From: Geminicoccaceae bacterium
GTDB taxonomy: Bacteria; Pseudomonadota; Alphaproteobacteria; Geminicoccales; Geminicoccaceae
DNA length: 50,954 nt
Direction of reading: 5' to 3'
NCBI GenBank assembly: GCA_025062095.1
Contig: JANXAZ010000026.1
Location: forward strand, 1 to 50,954
The notes beneath the pieces were generated by a model. The model was not told where the DNA came from, did not search any database, and saw only the letters and a program-made list of their open reading frames with translations. Shown one piece after another: positions 40,475 to 49,008 of this stretch; positions within the stretch are counted from its first letter, which is position 1; the number at the start of each line of letters is the position of its first letter. The translations under genes were made by a program, and so were the position numbers.

Positions 40475-42463
40475 TCAGATGTCGAGATCCCGAACGAGCG
40501 CGGCGTGTTCCTGGATGAAGGCGAGCCTGGTCTCGGGCCTGCGGCCCATCAGCCGTTCGACGAGATCGGCCGGGGAGCGCCCGTCCACGTCGTCGAGGCG
40601 GACCTGCAGCAGTTGACGCCGCCTCGGATCCATGGTGGTCTCTTTGAGCTGTTGCGGATTCATTTCGCCGAGACCCTTGAAACGGCTGATCTCGACGTCT
40701 TTTCGGCCCTTGAAAACGGTGGCCAAGAGGCGGTCGCGATCCCGCTCGTCGCGCGCGTAGACGATCTTGCCTTTGGCAGCGAGCCGGAACAGCGGAGGTT
40801 GCGCGAGATAGAGGTGGCCGTTTTCGATCAAAGGCCGCATTTCGCGGAAAAAGAACGTCAACAAGAGTGCAGCGATATGCGCTCCGTCGACGTCCGCATC
40901 GGTCATCACGATGATCTTCTCGTAGCGCAGATCCGATAGGCGGAAGTGTTTGCCCGTACCGCAGCCCAGAGCGGTCACCAAATCTTGCAGTTCTTTGTTG
41001 GCGGCGAGCCGATCGACGCTCGCCGAGGCGACGTTCAAGATTTTTCCTCGTACCGGCAGGATGGCTTGCGTCTCCCGGTCGCGCGCCTGTTTCGCCGATC
41101 CCCCGGCCGAGTCGCCCTCGACGATGAAGAGCTCGGTGCCTTCCCGGCCTTCGCGCGTGCAATCGGCGAGTTTGCCCGGCAAGCGCAGCTTGCGCGTCGC
41201 CGTCTTGCGGGCGACTTCGTCTCTGGCCCGGCGCCGCGCGAGCCGCTCTTCGGCCCGCGCGACGAGAGCGTCGAGGAGCCGCGTCGCCTCCGCGGGGTGC
41301 GCCCCCAGCCAGAGCTCGAAGCGATCTTTGAGAGCGGCCTCGACGAGCCGCGCCGCCTCGGGGCTCACCAGGCGGTCCTTGGTCTGCCCTTGGAATTGCG
41401 GCTCGCGCATGAAGAGCGAGAGCAGTACGACCGCACCCCCGAGCGCGTCGTCCGCGGTCAACAAGGATGCTTTTTTGTTGCCGAGCCGCTCGCCGTGTGT
41501 GCGCAGTCCCTTGACGATCGCGCTCCTGAGGCCGGTTTCGTGCGTGCCACCCGCGGGCGTGGGAACGGTGTTGCAATAATAGCCCGCGTAGCCTTGCTCG
41601 TCGGCCGGCCAGGCGATCGCCCAGGCGAGCCGTCCGCCGCCTTCGAGCTCCGCCTCGCCCGCGAAGGGCTCCTCGATCAGGCGTTCCCGCTCGGCGAGCA
41701 GGTTCTCCAAAAAGTCTTCGAGGCCGCGAGGGAAGTGGAACAGCTCTTCGGTCGGGACGCCCGAGCCCGGCTCGACGAGCGCGGGATCGCATCGCCAGAG
41801 GATCCGCACGCCGCGGAAGAGATACGCCTTCGAGCGCGCCATCTGGCGCAGGATCTCGGGGCGGAACCGCACCGTTTGCGGGAAGATCGAACGGTCCGGA
41901 ACGAAGCTCACCACCGTGCCGCGCCGCTCGCCCGCCGGTCCCACGCGCTCGATCGGCGCGAGCGGCTCGCCGCGCCGATAGCGCTGACGCCAGAGCACGC
42001 CCGAGCGGACGACTTCGACCTCGAGTTCCTCGGCGAGAGCGTTGACCACCGAGAGCCCCACCCCGTGCAACCCTCCCGAGGTGGTGTAGGCCTTCGCGGA
42101 GAATTTCCCTCCCGAATGCAATCGGGTGAGGATCACCTCGAGCGCGCTTTTGTCGGGAAATTTGGGATGCGGCTCGACCGGGATGCCGCGCCCGTCGTCG
42201 CGCACGGTGATCCGCTCCTCGAGCCCCAATTCGAGTTCGATGCGCCGGGCGTAGCCGGCTACGGCCTCGTCCATCGCATTGTCGAGGAGTTCGGCCACGA
42301 GATGGTGCAGCGCCCGCTCGTCGATCCCGCCGATGTACATCCCGGGCCGCCGACGCACCGGCTCGAGCCCTTCGAGGACTTCGATGTCCGCCGCCGTGTA
42401 CTCCTCCGACGCGGCGCGCGCGCTCCCCCGGGCCGCTTCGAGGCGGTCGAGCAGATCTGCCAT
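40475..42463 (-). CDS. parE: DNA topoisomerase IV subunit B
   Basis: A 662-residue ATPase subunit of topoisomerase IV, which unlinks daughter chromosomes. The GHKL ATP site is seen in LVAELLDNAMDEAVAGY, RDDGRGIP and SGGLHGVGLSVVNAL. The TOPRIM metal site is in ELFIVEGDSAGGSAKQARD and IIVMTDADVDGAHI. RFKGLGEMNPQQLKETTMDP is near the end. The ILPVRGKILNV continuation and overall length favour ParE over GyrB. The ATG at 42463 has GGAG seven bases upstream; a longer frame begins 60 bases earlier but adds no conserved residues. ParC is not in the window. Confidence 0.96.
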   Translation of the reverse strand: MADLLDRLEAARGSARAASEEYTAADIEVLEGLEPVRRRPGMYIGGIDERALHHLVAELLDNAMDEAVAGYARRIELELGLEERITVRDDGRGIPVEPHPKFPDKSALEVILTRLHSGGKFSAKAYTTSGGLHGVGLSVVNALAEELEVEVVRSGVLWRQRYRRGEPLAPIERVGPAGERRGTVVSFVPDRSIFPQTVRFRPEILRQMARSKAYLFRGVRILWRCDPALVEPGSGVPTEELFHFPRGLEDFLENLLAERERLIEEPFAGEAELEGGGRLAWAIAWPADEQGYAGYYCNTVPTPAGGTHETGLRSAIVKGLRTHGERLGNKKASLLTADDALGGAVVLLSLFMREPQFQGQTKDRLVSPEAARLVEAALKDRFELWLGAHPAEATRLLDALVARAEERLARRRARDEVARKTATRKLRLPGKLADCTREGREGTELFIVEGDSAGGSAKQARDRETQAILPVRGKILNVASASVDRLAANKELQDLVTALGCGTGKHFRLSDLRYEKIIVMTDADVDGAHIAALLLTFFFREMRPLIENGHLYLAQPPLFRLAAKGKIVYARDERDRDRLLATVFKGRKDVEISRFKGLGEMNPQQLKETTMDPRRRQLLQVRLDDVDGRSPADLVERLMGRRPETRLAFIQEHAALVRDLDI

Positions 42464-42600
42464 AGCTCGCTCCGAACCGCGGCTTCGGAACCCGCGCTTG
42501 ACCGGGTTCCGACCGCTGACCACGATCTCGTGGTGTTCGTCTAACGTCCGAGGCGAGCCGAGACCAGAGGTGGCGCGCTCTCGGTCCTTCGGGAGGAGCC

Positions 42601-44304
42601 ATGGTCGAGCCGCGACCCGAAACCGCCGCCGAAGCCCTCTTGCTGCGGCTCGCCCGGCACGGTGTCGCCTACCTGTTGGCGAATGCCGGGACCGATTTCG
42701 CTCCGCTCATCGAGGGCATCGTGCGCCTACGGATGCTCGGGGCGACGGTACCCGAGCCGCTGCCGATCGCGCACGAGACCTGCGCGGTCGCGATGGCGCA
42801 CGGCTATTGGCTGGTCAGCGGACGGCCGCTCGCCGTGGGTCTGCACACCAACGTCGGCCTCGCGAACGCGGTCATGGGATTGATCAACGCCGCCTCGGAC
42901 GAGATCCCGATGCTCGTGCTCTCCGGGCGCACCCCCGTCCTCGAGCGCGGCCGTCTCGGTGCCCGCGATCTTCCCATTCACTGGGGTCAGGAGATGCGCG
43001 ACCAGACCGCGATGGTCCGCGAAGTCGTGAAATGGGACTATGAACTCCGTTTCCCCGAGCAGATCGTCGAACTGATCGACCGCGCGTGCGCGATCGCGCA
43101 GAGCGCGCCTTGTGGTCCCGTTTACTTGAGCCTTCCGCGAGAAGTCTTGTGTGAACGCTACGAAGGCACCTTTCCTCGCGAGCCGCTGCAGAACCCGACC
43201 TCGTCGGCTCTCCCGGAGCTCGCCGCGATCGAAGAAACGGCTCGGGTCCTCGCCGAGGCCGAACGGCCGCTTCTCGTCGCCCAACGCAGCGGCCGCGAGG
43301 CCGCCGGTATGGCCGGGCTCGTGCGGCTGGCGGAAGCCCTCGGCGCACCCGTGGTCGAGCACTGGCCCGTTCGGATCTCGTTTCCGGCGAGCCATCCGCT
43401 GCACGCCGGCTTCGATCCGCATCCCCTCGTCACCGAAGCCGACGCGATCCTGATCGTCGATGCCATCGTTCCCTGGCTGCCGCACCGCGCGACACCTCCG
43501 CCCGGCTGCACGGTCGTCGCGCTGGGACCCGATCCGCTCCTGCGACGCATCCCGATCTGGGGTTTCCCGGTCCATCGCGCCCTCCCAGGCGAGCCCGCCG
43601 CCGTCCTCCACGCACTCGCGGAAGCGGTCGAAAGGCTGCCCGCGGCCGCGCGCGCCCGCTGCGCGGCGCGGCGCGCCGCTGTCGCGCGACGCCGGGGCGA
43701 ATGGCGCCTCGCCGCGCGAGCGCGCGCCCGCGAAGGATGCGGCGCGCCGATGACCGCCTCCTGGGCGAGCCTCTGTTTGGCGGAAGCGATCGGGCAAGAT
43801 GGTGTCGTGTTCACCGAGCTCGGGGCCGAGCCCGCGGTCGTGCAGCGCGATCGTCCCGGCAGCTGGTTCGGACACACGATGGCCGGCGGGCTCGGCTGGG
43901 CTCTCCCGGCCGCGCTCGGCGCCCAACTCGCCGACCGCGACCGATTGGTCGTGGCCGCCGTCGGCGACGGCTCTTATCTCTTCGCCAATCCGGTCGCCTG
44001 CCATCAGATCGCCGCCGCCAACGGCTTGGCGGTGCTCACGCTCGTTTTCGACAACGGCATGTGGAACGCGGTGCGCAAGTCGACCCTCGCCGTGTACCCG
44101 GATGGCCATGCCGCACGGACCAACCGCATGCCCTTGACCGCGCTCGAGCCGCGACTCGATTTCGCTGCGATCTGCCGGGCCTGCGGCGGCTTCGGCCGAC
44201 GCGTCCGCGACGGTCGCGAACTTCCCGCCGCCCTGACCGAGGCGCTTCGGGTCGTGCGCGAAGAGCGTCGACAAGCGCTGGTGCAGATCGAGGTGGCACC
44301 GTGA
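42601..44304 (+). CDS. Thiamine-diphosphate-requiring enzyme
   Basis: A 567-residue TPP enzyme of the acetolactate synthase/oxalyl-CoA decarboxylase-like superfamily. Landmarks are YLLANAGTDFAPL at the substrate end, the catalytic-glutamate segment IAHETCAVAMAHGYW near residue 58, a central domain from about 190 to 330, and the cofactor motif VGDGSYLFANPVACHQ with its later asparagine in VFDNGMWNAV. GGGAGGAGCC precedes the ATG. The last codon overlaps the GTG of a hotdog thioesterase gene, so an acyl-CoA substrate or product is plausible. The substrate is unknown. It is divergent from parE. Confidence 0.88.
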   Translation: MVEPRPETAAEALLLRLARHGVAYLLANAGTDFAPLIEGIVRLRMLGATVPEPLPIAHETCAVAMAHGYWLVSGRPLAVGLHTNVGLANAVMGLINAASDEIPMLVLSGRTPVLERGRLGARDLPIHWGQEMRDQTAMVREVVKWDYELRFPEQIVELIDRACAIAQSAPCGPVYLSLPREVLCERYEGTFPREPLQNPTSSALPELAAIEETARVLAEAERPLLVAQRSGREAAGMAGLVRLAEALGAPVVEHWPVRISFPASHPLHAGFDPHPLVTEADAILIVDAIVPWLPHRATPPPGCTVVALGPDPLLRRIPIWGFPVHRALPGEPAAVLHALAEAVERLPAAARARCAARRAAVARRRGEWRLAARARAREGCGAPMTASWASLCLAEAIGQDGVVFTELGAEPAVVQRDRPGSWFGHTMAGGLGWALPAALGAQLADRDRLVVAAVGDGSYLFANPVACHQIAAANGLAVLTLVFDNGMWNAVRKSTLAVYPDGHAARTNRMPLTALEPRLDFAAICRACGGFGRRVRDGRELPAALTEALRVVREERRQALVQIEVAP

Positions 44305-44696
44305 ACTCGGCGCGACATCCCTGCGAGCGGGGTCTGACCCCCGCGGTGCGGACGCTCGCCATGCCCGCGGACACCAATCCCTCGGGCGATATCTTCGGTG
44401 GTTGGCTGTTGGCGCAAATGGACATCGCCGCGGGTATCGTCGCGCACGAGCGTGCGCGCGGCCGGGTGGTGACCGTGGCGCTCGACGCGATGGCGTTCCA
44501 CGCTCCCGTCTTCGTCGGCGACCTCGTCAGCTGCTACGCCGAGGTCGTGCGCGTGGGCCGCACCTCCCTCACGCTCCATGTCGAAGCCTGGGCGCGACGC
44601 GGTCGCACCGGCGAGGAGGTCAAGGTCACCGAGGGACGGTTCACGATGGTGGCGGTCGACGCGGAACGACGCCCGCGGCCGGTGCCGACCGAATGA
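44301..44696 (+). CDS. Acyl-CoA thioesterase, hotdog family (YciA-like)
   Basis: A 131-residue single hotdog protein that should hydrolyse acyl-CoA esters. LAMPADTNPSGDIFGGWLLAQMD at the N-terminus, with the catalytic aspartate and glycine-rich turn, and VTVALDAMAFHAPVFVGDLV then VGRTSLTLHVEAW are hallmarks of the YciA/acyl-CoA hydrolase group. It starts with GTG inside the stop codon of the TPP enzyme (GTGA), so the two are made together. The chain length it prefers cannot be told. Confidence 0.92.
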   Translation: MNSARHPCERGLTPAVRTLAMPADTNPSGDIFGGWLLAQMDIAAGIVAHERARGRVVTVALDAMAFHAPVFVGDLVSCYAEVVRVGRTSLTLHVEAWARRGRTGEEVKVTEGRFTMVAVDAERRPRPVPTE

Positions 44697-44727: not shown

Positions 44728-46137
44728 TCAAATTCCGTAGTAGAGCTGGAGCTCGACGGGGTGCGGCGCACTGTCGACGAGTTCGATCTCGCGCCGCTTG
44801 AGTGCGATATAGGCCTGGATGAGGTCCGCCGACATGACTTCGCCCGCGAGCAAGAACTCGTGGTCGGCTTCGAGCGCTTCGAGCGCTTCTTCGAGAGAGC
44901 GCGCCACGGTCGGGAGGTCTTGGATCTCCTCCGGCCGCAGATCGTAGACGTTGCGGTCCATCGCGTCGCCCGGTTCGAGCTTGCGCTCGATGCCGTCCAA
45001 GCCCGCCATGAGGATGGCGGTGAAGGCGAGGTAGGGATTGGCGCTGGGGTCGGGAAAGCGGACCTCGATCCGCTTGCGCTCGGGCCGCGAGGCGTAAGGG
45101 ATGCGGATCGCCGCCGAACGATTGTGAGCGGCGTAGGTCAGGAGCATCGGCTCTTCCGCCCCGGGTCGCAAGCGTCGGTAGCTGTTCGTGGTGGGATTGG
45201 TGAAGGCGTTGAGGGCCCGGCCGTGCCGGATGATGCCGGCGATGAAGGAGAGGCAGAGAGGCGAAAGGTCCGCATAACCTTGGCCCGCGAAGACCGGCCG
45301 GTCGCCGCGCCAGAGAGCCTGGTGCACGCCCAGCCCCGAGCCCGGCTCTTCGGCCAGGGGCTTGGCCATGAAGGTCGCGGACTTGCCGTACGCGGCTGCC
45401 ACTTGATGGCAGACGTATTTGAAGGTCTGTAGCCGATCGGCCGTCTCGACGAGTCCTCCGGCGGCGAAGCTGGTACGGCACTGACCAGCTCCAGCCCCGT
45501 GGTCGTGCTGGATGCGGCTGAATCCCAACGTGCCCAGAATGGAGGCGATCTCGGCGCGGATGTCGGCGGCGTGATCGGCCGGAGGGAGAGCCAGCTGGGC
45601 CGCCCCGGGGTGCGGACGGTGCCCGGGGTTGCCGGGATGGTGAGCCTGCCAGGCGGCGGTGCGCGTCTCGCTGCCGGAAATCCGATAGCCGACGCCTCCC
45701 GGGCCCATCTCGATCCTGACGTCGTCGAACAGGAAATAGCTCACGTCGACCCCGACCGTGATCCGGTCGGCATAGGCGCGGCGCGCGAGCCATGCCTCGG
45801 CGCGTGCCGCGACCGAGCGCGGATCGCGCTCGTAACCGACGCCGGCGGCGGGATCGGCGGCATCGCACAGGATGACGAGGGTCGGCTGGGCGGCGAACGG
45901 ATCGACGAACGACGCGTCGAGATCCGGGCGAACCAGAAGATCGGCCTCGCTCACCTCGCGCCAGCCGGGCACTCCCGAGCCGTCGATCATGAGCCCGTGT
46001 TCGAGGATCTCGCGATCGACGCTCGCCGCATCGATGGTCGTGTGGCGCCAACGCCCCCCGAGATCGGTGAAGCGCAGATCGACCATTTTGATGCTTTCCG
46101 CGCGGATCCGCTCGAGAACCGCATCGACTTCGGCCAT
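44728..46137 (-). CDS. Glutamine synthetase homologue with degenerate metal site
   Basis: A 469-residue type I glutamine synthetase fold, complete from VDLRFTDLGG to the C-terminus. The active site is heavily altered. Where GlnA has GPEAEFF there is VGVDVSYF, HHEVA-AGQ-E becomes HDHGAGAGQCR, and NGSGMHVH becomes PGSGLGVH. Ligands equivalent to Glu129, Glu131, Glu212, Glu220 and His269 (Salmonella numbering) are thus changed, as are Asn264 and Ser53. By contrast NRSAAIRIP, IEVRFPDPSANPYLA and the adenylylation loop NVYDL (Tyr397 equivalent) remain. It is probably not a normal glutamine synthetase. It may be a pseudoenzyme, a subunit in mixed rings, or a ligase for another amine. GGAGGGGG precedes the ATG. 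It has no glnB neighbour. Confidence 0.88.
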   Translation of the reverse strand: MAEVDAVLERIRAESIKMVDLRFTDLGGRWRHTTIDAASVDREILEHGLMIDGSGVPGWREVSEADLLVRPDLDASFVDPFAAQPTLVILCDAADPAAGVGYERDPRSVAARAEAWLARRAYADRITVGVDVSYFLFDDVRIEMGPGGVGYRISGSETRTAAWQAHHPGNPGHRPHPGAAQLALPPADHAADIRAEIASILGTLGFSRIQHDHGAGAGQCRTSFAAGGLVETADRLQTFKYVCHQVAAAYGKSATFMAKPLAEEPGSGLGVHQALWRGDRPVFAGQGYADLSPLCLSFIAGIIRHGRALNAFTNPTTNSYRRLRPGAEEPMLLTYAAHNRSAAIRIPYASRPERKRIEVRFPDPSANPYLAFTAILMAGLDGIERKLEPGDAMDRNVYDLRPEEIQDLPTVARSLEEALEALEADHEFLLAGEVMSADLIQAYIALKRREIELVDSAPHPVELQLYYGI

Positions 46138-46894
46138 GCCCCCTCCGTTCCGGACGACGGATCTCTCTGGTACTGTCGGCGCGGACCGACGTGCGATCGG
46201 CGTTCGATCGAGCCGGGCCGAGCGCCGCGCCGCGACCCCCTCGGGCCGCGCGAACGGTGCGAGAGGACCGCACTGCCGCGGGACGACGAGTGTCGGTTCC
46301 GGGATCGCACCCGCCGACGCCGCACGGAGTTTCGAAGTCTCTCTGCGAGGATCGGAGGCGTCATCGACCCCTGTCGGCCGCTCGGGCCCGAGCGAGAACA
46401 ACCGAGCGCGAGAGGGATCGTACCGCTGTCCGCCGGGGTCTCGGTCGCGTCGCGTCGCCGCGCGCAGGCCTTCCGGCCGACCGCCGCGACGACGATTCGG
46501 GCGCACGGGGCGAACCGCTCGAGCCGGAGGCGCGAAAGCGAAAAGCGAAACGAGACATCGACGAACGCACAGCGCTCGGCCGAGACGAAGGGTCGGTGCC
46601 CGCGCGCAGCGGTCTCGCGGCCTTCGGGCCGGGCGCGGGCCGCGATCGCGACGGGGGCCGCGCCCCTTCCCCGCGCGCGACGCACGATCCCTGAACGCAC
46701 GAAGCCGGCCCGGGGGAGACCGGCGCGCGCGAGGTCCGGGGGCGCGTCAGCGACCAGCGGCCCGGCCGGGGCCGCGATCTTCTCGTCGAGCGTCCGGGCG
46801 ATCCGCCGCGTGGCGCGAGTGCGTGAAGCGGGCGTTGCCGGCCCGAACGAAATCTCGTCGCAAAGCGGGTCTGGGACGCCGATCGAGGGCTCGG
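46138..46894. other. Gene-free stretch of about 760 bases
   Basis: Between the glutamine synthetase homologue and the isochorismatase-like gene I see no supportable protein on either strand. Open frames exist but encode arginine-rich sequence with no motifs. The first 30 bases after 46137 hold the synthetase homologue's ribosome binding site. The rest may be promoter, unrecognised RNA or decayed DNA. Confidence 0.4.
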
Positions 46895-47595: not shown

Positions 47596-49008
47596 TTGAA
47601 CGAAACCCACACGATCCGCTTCGAGGATCTCGGCCTGCGCGAGGAGATCTTACGGGCGGTGCGCGAGTCCGGCTATGTCGAGCCGACGCCGATCCAGGCT
47701 CGCGCCATTCCCGAAATCCTCGCACGCAAAGACGTGATCGGCATCGCGCAGACGGGCACCGGCAAGACAGCTTCCTTCGTTTTGCCGATGTTGCAGATCC
47801 TGTCCTCGGGTCGTGGTCGCGCGCGTATGCCACGCTCGTTAATCTTGTCGCCCACGCGCGAGCTCGCCACACAGACCGCTCGCAATTTCGAAATCTACGG
47901 GAAATACCTGCATCTGTCTATGGCCCTCCTGATCGGTGGCGTCGGCATGGGCGCGCAAGAGCGTTTGCTCGACAAGGGGGTCGACGTTCTCATCGCCACG
48001 CCCGGGCGACTGCTCGATTGGTACGAGCGAGGCAAGATTCTTTTGGGCGGCATCGAAATTCTGGTAATCGACGAGGCGGACAGGATGTTCGACATGGGCT
48101 TCTTGCCAGATGTCGAACGCATCGTTTCGCTGATCCTCGGCCGCAGACAAACGTTGCTTTTCTCGGCCACGATGCCGCCGGAAGTGCGTCGTCTCGCCGA
48201 TCGATTTCTTGTGAACCCGGTCGAAGTCCAGGTCGCGCGGCCGGCGACCACGGCGGAGACCGTCGACGACGTCGTCGTCGAAGTGGGCGCTGACGAGAAA
48301 AAAGACGCCCTCCTCGAAATCATCGAGCGCGAAGGCATCACCAAAGCCATCGTCTTCTGCAATCGAAAACGGGATATCGGCGCGGTGATGCGTCACCTGC
48401 ATCGAGCGGGGCTGAAGGTTCGCGATCTGCACGGAGACCTCGAGCAGTCTCAACGGCAGGCGACCCTCGATCAGTTCACGCGCGGCGAAATCGACTTCCT
48501 GGTGGCCACGGACGTCGCGGCCCGCGGCTTGGACATCACGGACATGCCGGCCGTGATCAACTTCGACGTGCCGCTCAATCCGGAAGATTACGTCCACCGC
48601 ATCGGCCGCACGGGTCGGGCCGGCCGCCGCGGACGCGCGTTCACGCTCGCCGCGCCCGAAGAGCAACGGTTCCTCGCCAATATCGAGAAGTTGACCAAAC
48701 GCAAAATCCCGCGGCTCGCTCGGGTCGGCGCGCGCGAGGAGGAGAAGGGCGCCGGCGAGCCGGTGCCGATGCGCCAGCCGGTCCCCCGGCCCGTCGAGGT
48801 CGGAAGGCGGCGCCGGAGCGCGGCCGCCGCGACGGCACCGCGGGAAACGTCGGTGGTGCGCTCGGCGCAGAAGACGCCTTCCGCGCGCAAGACCGGAGCG
48901 CGCTCCGCTTCCGCCCCGCAACGCGAGGCTCAGGTGCTCGCGTTCGGCGAGCACGTCCCGCGCTTTCTCGCCAACCCCGTACCGGTCCCGATGCGCAAGG
49001 CCTCCTGA
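47596..49008 (+). CDS. DEAD-box RNA helicase
   Basis: A 470-residue DEAD-box helicase. In order it shows the Q motif (RFEDLGLREEILRAV and EPTPIQ), Walker A AQTGTGKT near residue 50, PTRELA, TPGRLLD, DEAD in VIDEADRMFD near 158, SAT, the second RecA domain with VFCNRKRD, DVAARGLDI and HRIGRTGRAGRRG. The C-terminal 90 residues are basic and low-complexity, a common RNA-binding tail. It belongs to the RhlE/CshA-like group, acting in RNA decay, ribosome assembly or cold response. The TTG start has no clear ribosome binding site. Its stop overlaps the next gene (TGATG). Confidence 0.95.
   Translation: MNETHTIRFEDLGLREEILRAVRESGYVEPTPIQARAIPEILARKDVIGIAQTGTGKTASFVLPMLQILSSGRGRARMPRSLILSPTRELATQTARNFEIYGKYLHLSMALLIGGVGMGAQERLLDKGVDVLIATPGRLLDWYERGKILLGGIEILVIDEADRMFDMGFLPDVERIVSLILGRRQTLLFSATMPPEVRRLADRFLVNPVEVQVARPATTAETVDDVVVEVGADEKKDALLEIIEREGITKAIVFCNRKRDIGAVMRHLHRAGLKVRDLHGDLEQSQRQATLDQFTRGEIDFLVATDVAARGLDITDMPAVINFDVPLNPEDYVHRIGRTGRAGRRGRAFTLAAPEEQRFLANIEKLTKRKIPRLARVGAREEEKGAGEPVPMRQPVPRPVEVGRRRRSAAAATAPRETSVVRSAQKTPSARKTGARSASAPQREAQVLAFGEHVPRFLANPVPVPMRKAS

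What the first reader, a model, noticed from the sequence alone, without database searches (positions are those of the whole stretch)
44728..46137. Glutamine synthetase pseudoenzyme keeping the adenylylation tyrosine
Positions equivalent to Glu129, Glu131, Glu212, Glu220 and His269 are changed to Asp, Ser, His, Arg and Gly, and Asn264 and Ser53 to Pro and Gly, while the whole fold, the arginine loop and NVYDL stay intact with no frameshift. Losing nearly all metal ligands while keeping the rest implies selection for a non-catalytic role. One possibility is a regulatory subunit mixing with active GlnA, or a sink for the adenylyltransferase/PII system. A new ligase chemistry is another possibility.
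Basis: partly seen in the sequence, partly recalled or inferred. Interest (0 to 1): 0.75.

Follow-up and report, generated by a model that had tools for sequence, protein, structure and literature searches.

The report
Displaced glutamine synthetase kept as pseudoenzyme
A group of bacteria keeps a disabled copy of its original nitrogen-assimilation enzyme alongside a working replacement, and the disabled copy has been preserved by selection, most likely as a regulatory partner of the working enzyme.

Summary
The gene is real: 46137..44728 (-), 469 aa, a full-length type I-beta glutamine synthetase (GS) with 5 of 6 metal ligands replaced.

It is not a one-off. 29 of 31 genomes held for this alphaproteobacterial order carry an orthologue. 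All 28 full-length copies lack Glu212 and Asn264; 27 of 28 lack Glu131. All 28 keep Asp50, Arg321, Arg339, Arg344, Arg359 and the adenylylation motif Tyr397-Asp-Leu. dN/dS within the genus is 0.06-0.18. The same genome has a canonical glnA; adenylyltransferase GlnE is in 31 of 31.

Tree, a one-residue indel and synteny agree that the pseudoenzyme is the resident alphaproteobacterial glnA, displaced by a glnA of another lineage that, where the genes still lie together, sits between glnB and it. Relatives show successive states: resident only, pair with intact resident, pair with Glu212His, pair with pseudoenzyme, resident lost.

Best mechanism (inferred, about 0.4): a non-catalytic subunit of mixed GS rings under adenylylation control. 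A GlnE decoy, a homomeric scaffold or sensor, and new chemistry are not excluded. My literature listings showed no bacterial GS pseudoenzyme; vertebrate lengsin is the nearest known case.

The parts
44728..46137 (-). GS pseudoenzyme gene (469 aa, P0001), resident-lineage glnA
46142..46146 (-). GGAGG Shine-Dalgarno-like sequence upstream of the ATG
45982..45984 (-). codon of Asp52 (= Asp50 of Salmonella GS, loop donated to the neighbouring subunit), kept in 28 of 28 copies
45745..45747 (-). codon of Asp131 at the Glu129 position
45739..45741 (-). codon of Ser133 at the Glu131 position (metal site n1)
45496..45498 (-). codon of Gly214 at the Glu212 position (Glu lost in 28 of 28 copies)
45475..45477 (-). 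codon of Arg221 at the Glu220 position
45343..45345 (-). codon of Pro265 at the Asn264 position (Pro in 22 of 28 copies)
45328..45330 (-). codon of Gly270 at the His269 position
44944..44946 (-). codon of Tyr398 (= adenylylation Tyr397), in D-R-N-V-Y-D-L; Tyr-Asp-Leu in 28 of 28 copies
44301..44696 (+). hotdog thioesterase, neighbour of glnA in some other Alphaproteobacteria too
40475..42523 (-). parE (DNA topoisomerase IV subunit B), neighbour of glnA in some other Alphaproteobacteria too
47596..49008 (+). DEAD-box helicase, part of the same neighbourhood

Best explanation
SHOWN: by tree, indel and synteny this protein is the resident alphaproteobacterial GlnA of this order, kept after a glnA of another lineage took the place beside glnB. 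It has lost catalytic groups of its C-domain half-site (n1 metal ligands Glu131 and Glu212, glutamate-binding Asn264, and in this genus Glu220 and His269) and stays under purifying selection. INFERRED: it works as a non-catalytic, regulatory subunit that assembles with the active GlnA into mixed GS rings. A GS active site is built from the C-terminal domain of one subunit and the Asp50-loop of its neighbour. The pseudoenzyme lost much of the first and kept the second, so it can still complete or latch a neighbouring active site but cannot run its own. Its Tyr397 loop would let GlnE/PII adenylylate it, so that composition and modification of the mixed ring tune the acquired GlnA. That it is a selected pseudoenzyme I hold at about 0.9; the mixed-ring mechanism at about 0.4.
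For: (1) 29 of 31 genomes of the order carry it; GlnE is in 31 of 31. (2) dN/dS of 0.055-0.175 over 15 pairs within the genus, against 0.053-0.152 for the active glnA in 3 pairs. (3) Positions conserved in Alphaproteobacteria are kept at 71% overall but at 40%, 49% and 45% in segments 205-222, 258-275 and the central loop 150-188 (permutation P 0.0008, 0.017, 0.002). Asp50, Gly51, Gly56, Asp64, Arg321/339/344/359 and Tyr397 are kept in 28 of 28, as is Trp57. (4) Split active site: Asp50' comes from the neighbouring chain (PMC6199252, passages; PMC10799026, passages). (5) In 6 genomes it directly follows active glnA on the same strand, 120-310 bp between the matches, with glnB upstream (in G022 and G027 glnB is 2.0-2.3 kb off, with another gene between), so co-expression is likely. 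(6) The predicted fold superposes on dodecameric AMPylated GlnA (8v1y, TM 0.90, rmsd 4.5).
Against: No interaction, oligomeric state or modification was measured. Asp50 and Arg339 may be kept as an inter-subunit latch inside a homomer; lengsin, the known GS pseudoenzyme, is itself a dodecamer (PMC2667176, passage). The strand of Glu129/Glu131 (125-135) is not significantly depleted (62%, P 0.27), and the adenylylation-loop segment is not kept better than average (72%): Lys394 is Arg in 28 of 28 and Pro400 is lost in 21 of 28. Tyr397 may be partly structural. In the window's own genus the gene is not linked to active glnA. It evolves much faster than the active copy (mean identity 52.5% against 75.4% over the same 136 genome pairs). 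At 27 fixed alpha/active-copy differences it keeps the alpha state more often (399 against 81 of 756 cells; single positions such as 342 and 302 do have the active copy's state), so there is no overall convergence towards the partner. At ligand level some copies are mild: G008 has lost only Glu212 of the six.
Confidence: 0.4

Rival explanations
1. Decoy or sink for the adenylylation cascade: a homomeric pseudoenzyme whose Tyr397 loop competes with active GlnA for GlnE, buffering or delaying adenylylation, without mixing into its rings.
For: D393, Y397, D398 and L399 in 28 of 28 copies; GlnE in 31 of 31 genomes. Two active relatives of the acquired lineage, in genomes (79% and 89% complete) without a GlnE match over the cut-off (G321, G488), have Phe at 397.
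Against: K394R in 28 of 28 and P400 lost in 21 of 28; the loop as a whole is no more conserved than the rest. G327 (96% complete) keeps Tyr397 although no GlnE was found, so Tyr397 can persist without it.
Confidence: 0.17
2. Homomeric ligand-binding or scaffold protein: a GS-shaped dodecamer that binds a nucleotide or an amino acid through the retained arginines and passes the signal on, or serves a structural role as proposed for lengsin.
For: R321, R339, R344, R359 in 28 of 28, R355 and E357 in 27 of 28, Glu or Asp at 129 in 27 of 28. Family-specific residues are conserved (G212, E263, P264 and E328 in 22 of 28 each, R394 in 28 of 28). Lengsin is a precedent: a remnant GSI, dodecameric, not catalytic, with a lens role (PMC2667176, passage).
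Against: H269, H271, S273 and K352 vary, so nucleotide binding is not clearly kept. The retained arginines may be structural.
Confidence: 0.22
3. A ligase with new chemistry: the remodelled pocket (G212, E263-P264, acidic 327-328, A335) catalyses another ATP-dependent amide or phosphorylation reaction with fewer metals.
For: The pocket changes are themselves conserved in most copies (22-24 of 28), as in a new function rather than plain decay.
Against: Glu212 is gone in 28 of 28 and Glu131 in 27 of 28; acids remain there otherwise only as Asp (131 in 2 copies, 212 in 1). His269 is variable. The set of changed ligands differs between genera (1 to 6 of 6), unlike a conserved catalytic site. I saw no genomic neighbour that suggests a substrate.
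Confidence: 0.1
4. Slow decay: a redundant gene on its way to loss, with residual constraint only on folding.
For: Faster evolution than the active copy and stepwise ligand loss; relatives outside the order in which the resident gene is gone from the locus (G392, G327).
Against: dN/dS of 0.055-0.175 within the genus; present in 29 of 31 genomes, 15 of 16 genera; no stop inside any of the 28 full-length copies; conserved family-specific residues.
Confidence: 0.06

Closest known systems
Type I-beta glutamine synthetase (GlnA, E. coli/Salmonella; PDB 8v1y, 7w85, 2gls)
   Same: Whole fold, both Pfam domains, active-site arginines, Asp50-loop, most conserved C-terminal residues, adenylylation motif; scores above the NCBIfam cut-off for type I GS (484.6 against 429.15).
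   Different: n1 metal ligands and Asn264 lost; in this genus also Glu220 and His269. Coexists with a canonical GlnA of another lineage.
Lengsin (vertebrate lens pseudo-GS, PDB 2j9i)
   Same: A GSI remnant left after another GS took over, dodecameric, not catalytically active, put to another use (PMC2667176, passage). The evolutionary logic is alike.
   Different: Very distant in sequence (E 1.4e-8 over residues 202-453). Lengsin is a vertebrate protein and its replacement was GSII; this one is a bacterial GS I-beta with an adenylylation loop, displaced by another GS I.
Actinobacterial GlnA2/GlnA3/GlnA4 (gamma-glutamylpolyamine and ethanolamide synthetases)
   Same: Additional glnA-like genes in a genome with a true glnA.
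   Different: Those are active ligases with another amine substrate (PMC5403932, PMC8998196, PMC6529630; starts of abstracts in the listing). This protein scores 180 against a cut-off of 650 on the gamma-glutamylputrescine synthetase model.
Pseudoenzyme partners such as the inactive S-adenosylmethionine decarboxylase homologue, Fam20A or TbPRMT1-PRO
   Same: Inactive relative that regulates the active enzyme by hetero-oligomerisation (passages of PMC10211241): the proposed way of working.
   Different: Unrelated families, and there the partnership is experimental. Here it is a proposal, and the inactive copy is the resident gene displaced by one of another lineage.

Membership tests
Type I-beta glutamine synthetase (as a protein family) | beta-Grasp N-domain plus GS catalytic domain, full length | tested here: met
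   PF03951 77.8 bits, PF00120 350 bits; TM 0.90 to 8v1y
Type I-beta glutamine synthetase (as a protein family) | Score over the TIGR00653 type I GS cut-off | tested here: met
   484.6 against 429.15 bits
Type I-beta glutamine synthetase (as a protein family) | Adenylylation motif with Tyr397 | tested here: met
   Y397, D398 and L399 in 28 of 28 copies; that it is adenylylated was not tested
Catalytically active glutamine synthetase | Metal ligands Glu129, Glu131, Glu212, Glu220, His269, Glu357 | tested here: not met
   window protein keeps only Glu357 (Glu129 is Asp); E212 in 0 of 28, E131 in 1 of 28 copies
Catalytically active glutamine synthetase | Glutamate-binding Asn264 | tested here: not met
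   0 of 28 copies keep it
Catalytically active glutamine synthetase | GS activity in vitro or complementation | not testable with these tools
   needs an assay
Dodecameric GS | Assembly into two hexameric rings | not testable with these tools
   only a monomer was modelled; C-terminal residues P457, P459, E461 and Y465 are kept in 93-100% of copies, Y466 in 61% and S467 in 29%
Pseudoenzyme | Conserved catalytic motif lost while fold and purifying selection are kept | tested here: met
Lengsin family | Close sequence relationship to vertebrate lengsin | tested here: not met
   last of 38 PDB matches, E 1.4e-8; the tree, which held no lengsin, places it beside alphaproteobacterial GlnA
Gamma-glutamylpolyamine synthetase | Score over the NF045547 cut-off | tested here: not met
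   180.1 against 650 bits

The most novel reading that the evidence does not exclude
An order of Alphaproteobacteria runs a hetero-oligomeric glutamine synthetase: the resident GlnA, displaced by a GlnA of another lineage inserted beside glnB, was turned into a non-catalytic ring subunit that donates its Asp50-loop, and carries an adenylylation site, to regulate its replacement.
Probability: 0.33. Interest if true: 0.88.

Novelty: new variant of a known kind. Interest (0 to 1): 0.72.

Why it matters
Bacterial GS is a textbook homododecamer controlled by adenylylation. A selected, order-wide GS pseudoenzyme beside it would mean that its regulation can also be set by subunit composition. The locus preserves the steps by which an enzyme displaced by another lineage became a pseudoenzyme, which makes the origin of pseudoenzymes testable with real intermediates (intact, Glu212His, fuller loss). 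It also warns that the NCBIfam model for type I GS accepts this protein as an active enzyme.

Tried and rejected
Pseudogene or sequencing error: rejected (uninterrupted frame, 28 full-length orthologues without inner stops, low dN/dS). Sole GS of the genome: rejected (canonical glnA on contig C116). Recent duplicate of the genome's own glnA: rejected (tree, indel, synteny). Pseudoenzyme in other orders: 385 genomes of the class were searched with the 28-row profile; in the listed rows no hit outside the order stood clear of the canonical GS score range (the list was cut). I fetched 18 stretches, one of them a 10-base dummy; the other 17, from high-scoring outside genomes (not all of those listed), held 18 GS, of which 17 were intact at 13 positions and one (G471) had Glu212His. 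Distant pseudoenzymes could have been missed, since profile scores do not separate the two (lowest full-length family copy 650.7, outside hits up to 686.6). Sigma-54 (-24/-12) promoters upstream of the pseudoenzyme: none in 29, but only 1 weak site in 21 glnB upstream stretches used as control (one of these, G000c, had 0 bases), so the scan is uninformative. Literature: the listings (titles and starts of abstracts) showed no bacterial GS pseudoenzyme; I opened passages of 5 papers only, and this open-access library misses most subscription papers. On rechecking I lowered the main mechanism from 0.42 to 0.40 and raised the homomeric rival from 0.20 to 0.22, because of the lengsin passage.

Full report
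THE OBSERVATION. The gene lies at 46137..44728 on the minus strand, 469 codons plus stop, without interruption, with GGAGG just upstream of the ATG. It has both GS Pfam domains, and its closest PDB relatives are type I GS. In an alignment numbered by Salmonella GS it has Asp at Glu129, Ser at Glu131, Gly at Glu212, Arg at Glu220, Gly at His269, Pro at Asn264 and Gly at Ser53. Kept are Glu357, Asp50, Trp57, Arg321, Arg339, Arg344, Arg355, Arg359 and Tyr397. The roles of these residues and the Salmonella numbering are recalled, apart from what the papers cited below say. Ser53 itself is a poor marker of inactivity, since Ser54Ala raised activity in Providencia GS (PMC6199252; passages). The AlphaFold2 monomer (mean pLDDT 84.6; under 50 at 162-173, 175-185 and 467-469) matches AMPylated GlnA 8v1y with TM 0.90 and rmsd 4.5.

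THE GENOME AND THE ORDER. The window's genome (99.57% complete) holds three GS-like genes: a canonical glnA (contig C116, P0002, ligands present), this gene, and a GS-like protein on C110 (P0003) that reaches no NCBIfam cut-off. The order consists, among held genomes, of one family with 31 genomes in 16 genera. 29 of 31, in 15 genera, have the pseudoenzyme: 28 full length, and one (G010) in two pieces with unknown bases between. The misses are G015 (70% complete, no GS match) and G016 (86% complete, canonical type I gene only). A full canonical-type glnA was found in 24 of 31, a fragment in G010, none in G003, G015, G021, G026, G029 and G030 (70-95% complete). Residues were read in 18 of the 24, all intact at the ligands. 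All four genomes of at most 8 contigs (G005, G008, G017, G022) have both genes. GlnE is found in 31 of 31. Two contigs found by the named-genome scan have the lengths of G024 and G025 contigs and are titled Alphaproteobacteria MAGs; I did not establish the name of the order.

WHAT IS LOST AND WHAT IS KEPT. 127 positions are conserved in at least 98% of 133 non-pseudo GS. In the 28 full-length pseudoenzymes, Glu212 and Asn264 are kept in 0, Glu131 in 1, Ser53 in 4, His269 and Glu327 in 9 (Asp at 327 in 13 more), Glu220 in 15, Glu129 in 19 (Asp in 8 more). 43 positions are kept in all 28, among them Asp50, Arg321, Arg339, Arg344, Arg359, Tyr397 and Leu399. Asp398 and Trp57 are also kept in 28 of 28. 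By segment, of 208 positions conserved in 95 alphaproteobacterial GS, losses concentrate at 205-222, 258-275 and the central loop 150-188 (permutation P 0.0008, 0.017 and 0.002). The strand with Glu129/Glu131 (P 0.27), the N-domain, the arginine segment, the adenylylation loop and the C-terminus do not differ from the average, and 225-257, 276-320 and 361-387 are kept above it. The adenylylation loop is therefore kept, but not exceptionally: Lys394 is Arg in 28 of 28 and Pro400 is lost in 21 of 28. Family-specific residues exist: Gly212, Glu263, Pro264, Glu328 and Arg384 in 22 of 28 each, Ala335 in 24, Arg394 in 28. Metal ligands changed per copy: 1 (G008) to 6 (G018); the window's genus 4-5, counting Glu129Asp.

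SELECTION. Nei-Gojobori dN/dS was computed for 11 of the 28 copies. Between the six genomes of the window's genus it is 0.055-0.175 (15 pairs), against 0.053-0.152 for the canonical glnA (3 pairs). Within genus g2 it is 0.065-0.084, and between G019 and G029 0.126. Between genera g2 and g15 it is 0.29-0.38. dS is 0.5-1.0 in the window's genus, so the ratios are rough. Over 136 genome pairs the pseudoenzymes are less alike (mean 52.5%) than the canonical copies (75.4%) in every pair. So it is constrained, but evolves faster.

ORIGIN. (a) Tree of 88 GS: pseudoenzymes form one side of a branch (100/100) and attach at the alphaproteobacterial GlnA; the canonical copies of the order form another group (100/100) inside one with GlnA from other classes (100/98). 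The tree is unrooted and some branches are long. (b) A one-residue insertion between 212 and 220 is present in 18 of 18 canonical copies of the order and 20 of 20 GlnA from other classes. It is absent from 78 of 78 named and 17 of 17 unnamed GlnA of other Alphaproteobacteria, and from 28 of 28 pseudoenzymes. (c) Synteny: some ordinary Alphaproteobacteria show glnB-glnA-thioesterase-parE-hydrolase-DEAD helicase (L068, L130; parts of it in L066, L071, L098, L106, L120, L129; 8 of 78 named loci have parE near, many being short). In the order, parE lies within the fetched flank of the pseudoenzyme in 14 of 29 loci and the thioesterase in 11 of 29, while glnB precedes the canonical copy in 21 of 21 loci examined. 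In G008, G014, G018, G022, G023 and G027 the order is glnB, canonical, pseudoenzyme, with 120-310 bp between the two GS matches (in G022 and G027 another gene lies between glnB and glnA). In G012 the gap is 2.8 kb; in G011 and G013 the two are near but divergent. Hence the pseudoenzyme is most simply the resident glnA, and the active copy a lineage that settled between glnB and it.

INTERMEDIATES. The same acquired lineage occurs in at least 8 genomes of 5 other families among 385 of the class, in one clade with that of this order (100/100). At the same kind of locus: G293 has only an intact resident gene; G465 has glnB-acquired-resident with the resident intact; G471 has the pair with the resident changed, among 18 positions listed, at Glu212 (to His) only; G392 and G327 have glnB-acquired followed by the parE region without the resident gene. 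The G471 resident gene is sister to the pseudoenzymes (100/96), so loss of Glu212 may have been the first step. Full GlnE matches are present in G293, G465 and G471.

MECHANISM. GS active sites lie between the C-domain of one subunit and the N-domain of the next, with Asp50 from the neighbour (PMC6199252, passages; PMC10799026, passages). In an archaeal and the Bacillus GS the Asp50-loop locks or frees the catalytic arginine and the Glu-flap (PMC10799026). The pseudoenzyme lost key groups of its own catalytic half and kept the half it offers to a neighbour, plus the arginine loop. That asymmetry, and linkage to active glnA in 6 genomes, favour a mixed ring in which it modulates the active subunit. 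Inactive relatives that regulate by hetero-oligomerisation are known in other families (PMC10211241, passages). None of this shows mixing: the same residues could hold a homomer together, as in dodecameric lengsin (PMC2667176, passage), and positions that distinguish the two lineages show no overall convergence. The rivals are ranked in their field.

NOVELTY. The listings of ten searches of the open-access library showed no bacterial GS pseudoenzyme. Lengsin, a GSI remnant left where another GS took over, is the nearest known case and very distant in sequence. I file this as a new variant of a known kind: a pseudoenzyme of the GS family, with an origin (resident gene displaced by another GS I at the same locus) and a setting (beside an active GlnA and GlnE) that I have not seen described.

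Noticed in passing
G465, G471, G392, G327, G321, G488, G493, G205 (L232, L233, L246-L259): A GlnA lineage of non-alphaproteobacterial type recurs in scattered alphaproteobacterial families, downstream of glnB, with the resident glnA behind it intact (G465), changed at Glu212 (G471) or gone from the locus (G392, G327).
   Followed up: yes
L256, L257 (G321, G488; genomes of 1.0-1.1 Mb, 79% and 89% complete): Active-type GlnA with Phe in place of adenylylation Tyr397; no GlnE match over the cut-off in either genome.
   Followed up: partly
L193, L194 (G022, G027), between glnB and canonical glnA: An extra gene lies between glnB and glnA; its product best matches the GlnII model but below that model's cut-off (391.8 against 500 bits, G022 copy scanned).
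   Followed up: partly
window 46138-46894: The 757 bases between the pseudoenzyme gene and the isochorismatase gene gave no match to the alpha/beta-hydrolase-type gene that all five congeners have there (type from weak NCBIfam matches).
   Followed up: no
G000:C110 (L003), P0003: A third GS-like protein with only the catalytic Pfam domain, below every NCBIfam cut-off; substrate unknown.
   Followed up: no
NCBIfam TIGR00653 on P0001: The curated type I GS model accepts this pseudoenzyme above its cut-off (484.6 against 429.15), so automatic annotation is likely to call it an active glutamine synthetase.
   Followed up: yes
G003:C99:10579-11292: The GlnE match of this congener contains one in-frame TAG.
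   Followed up: no
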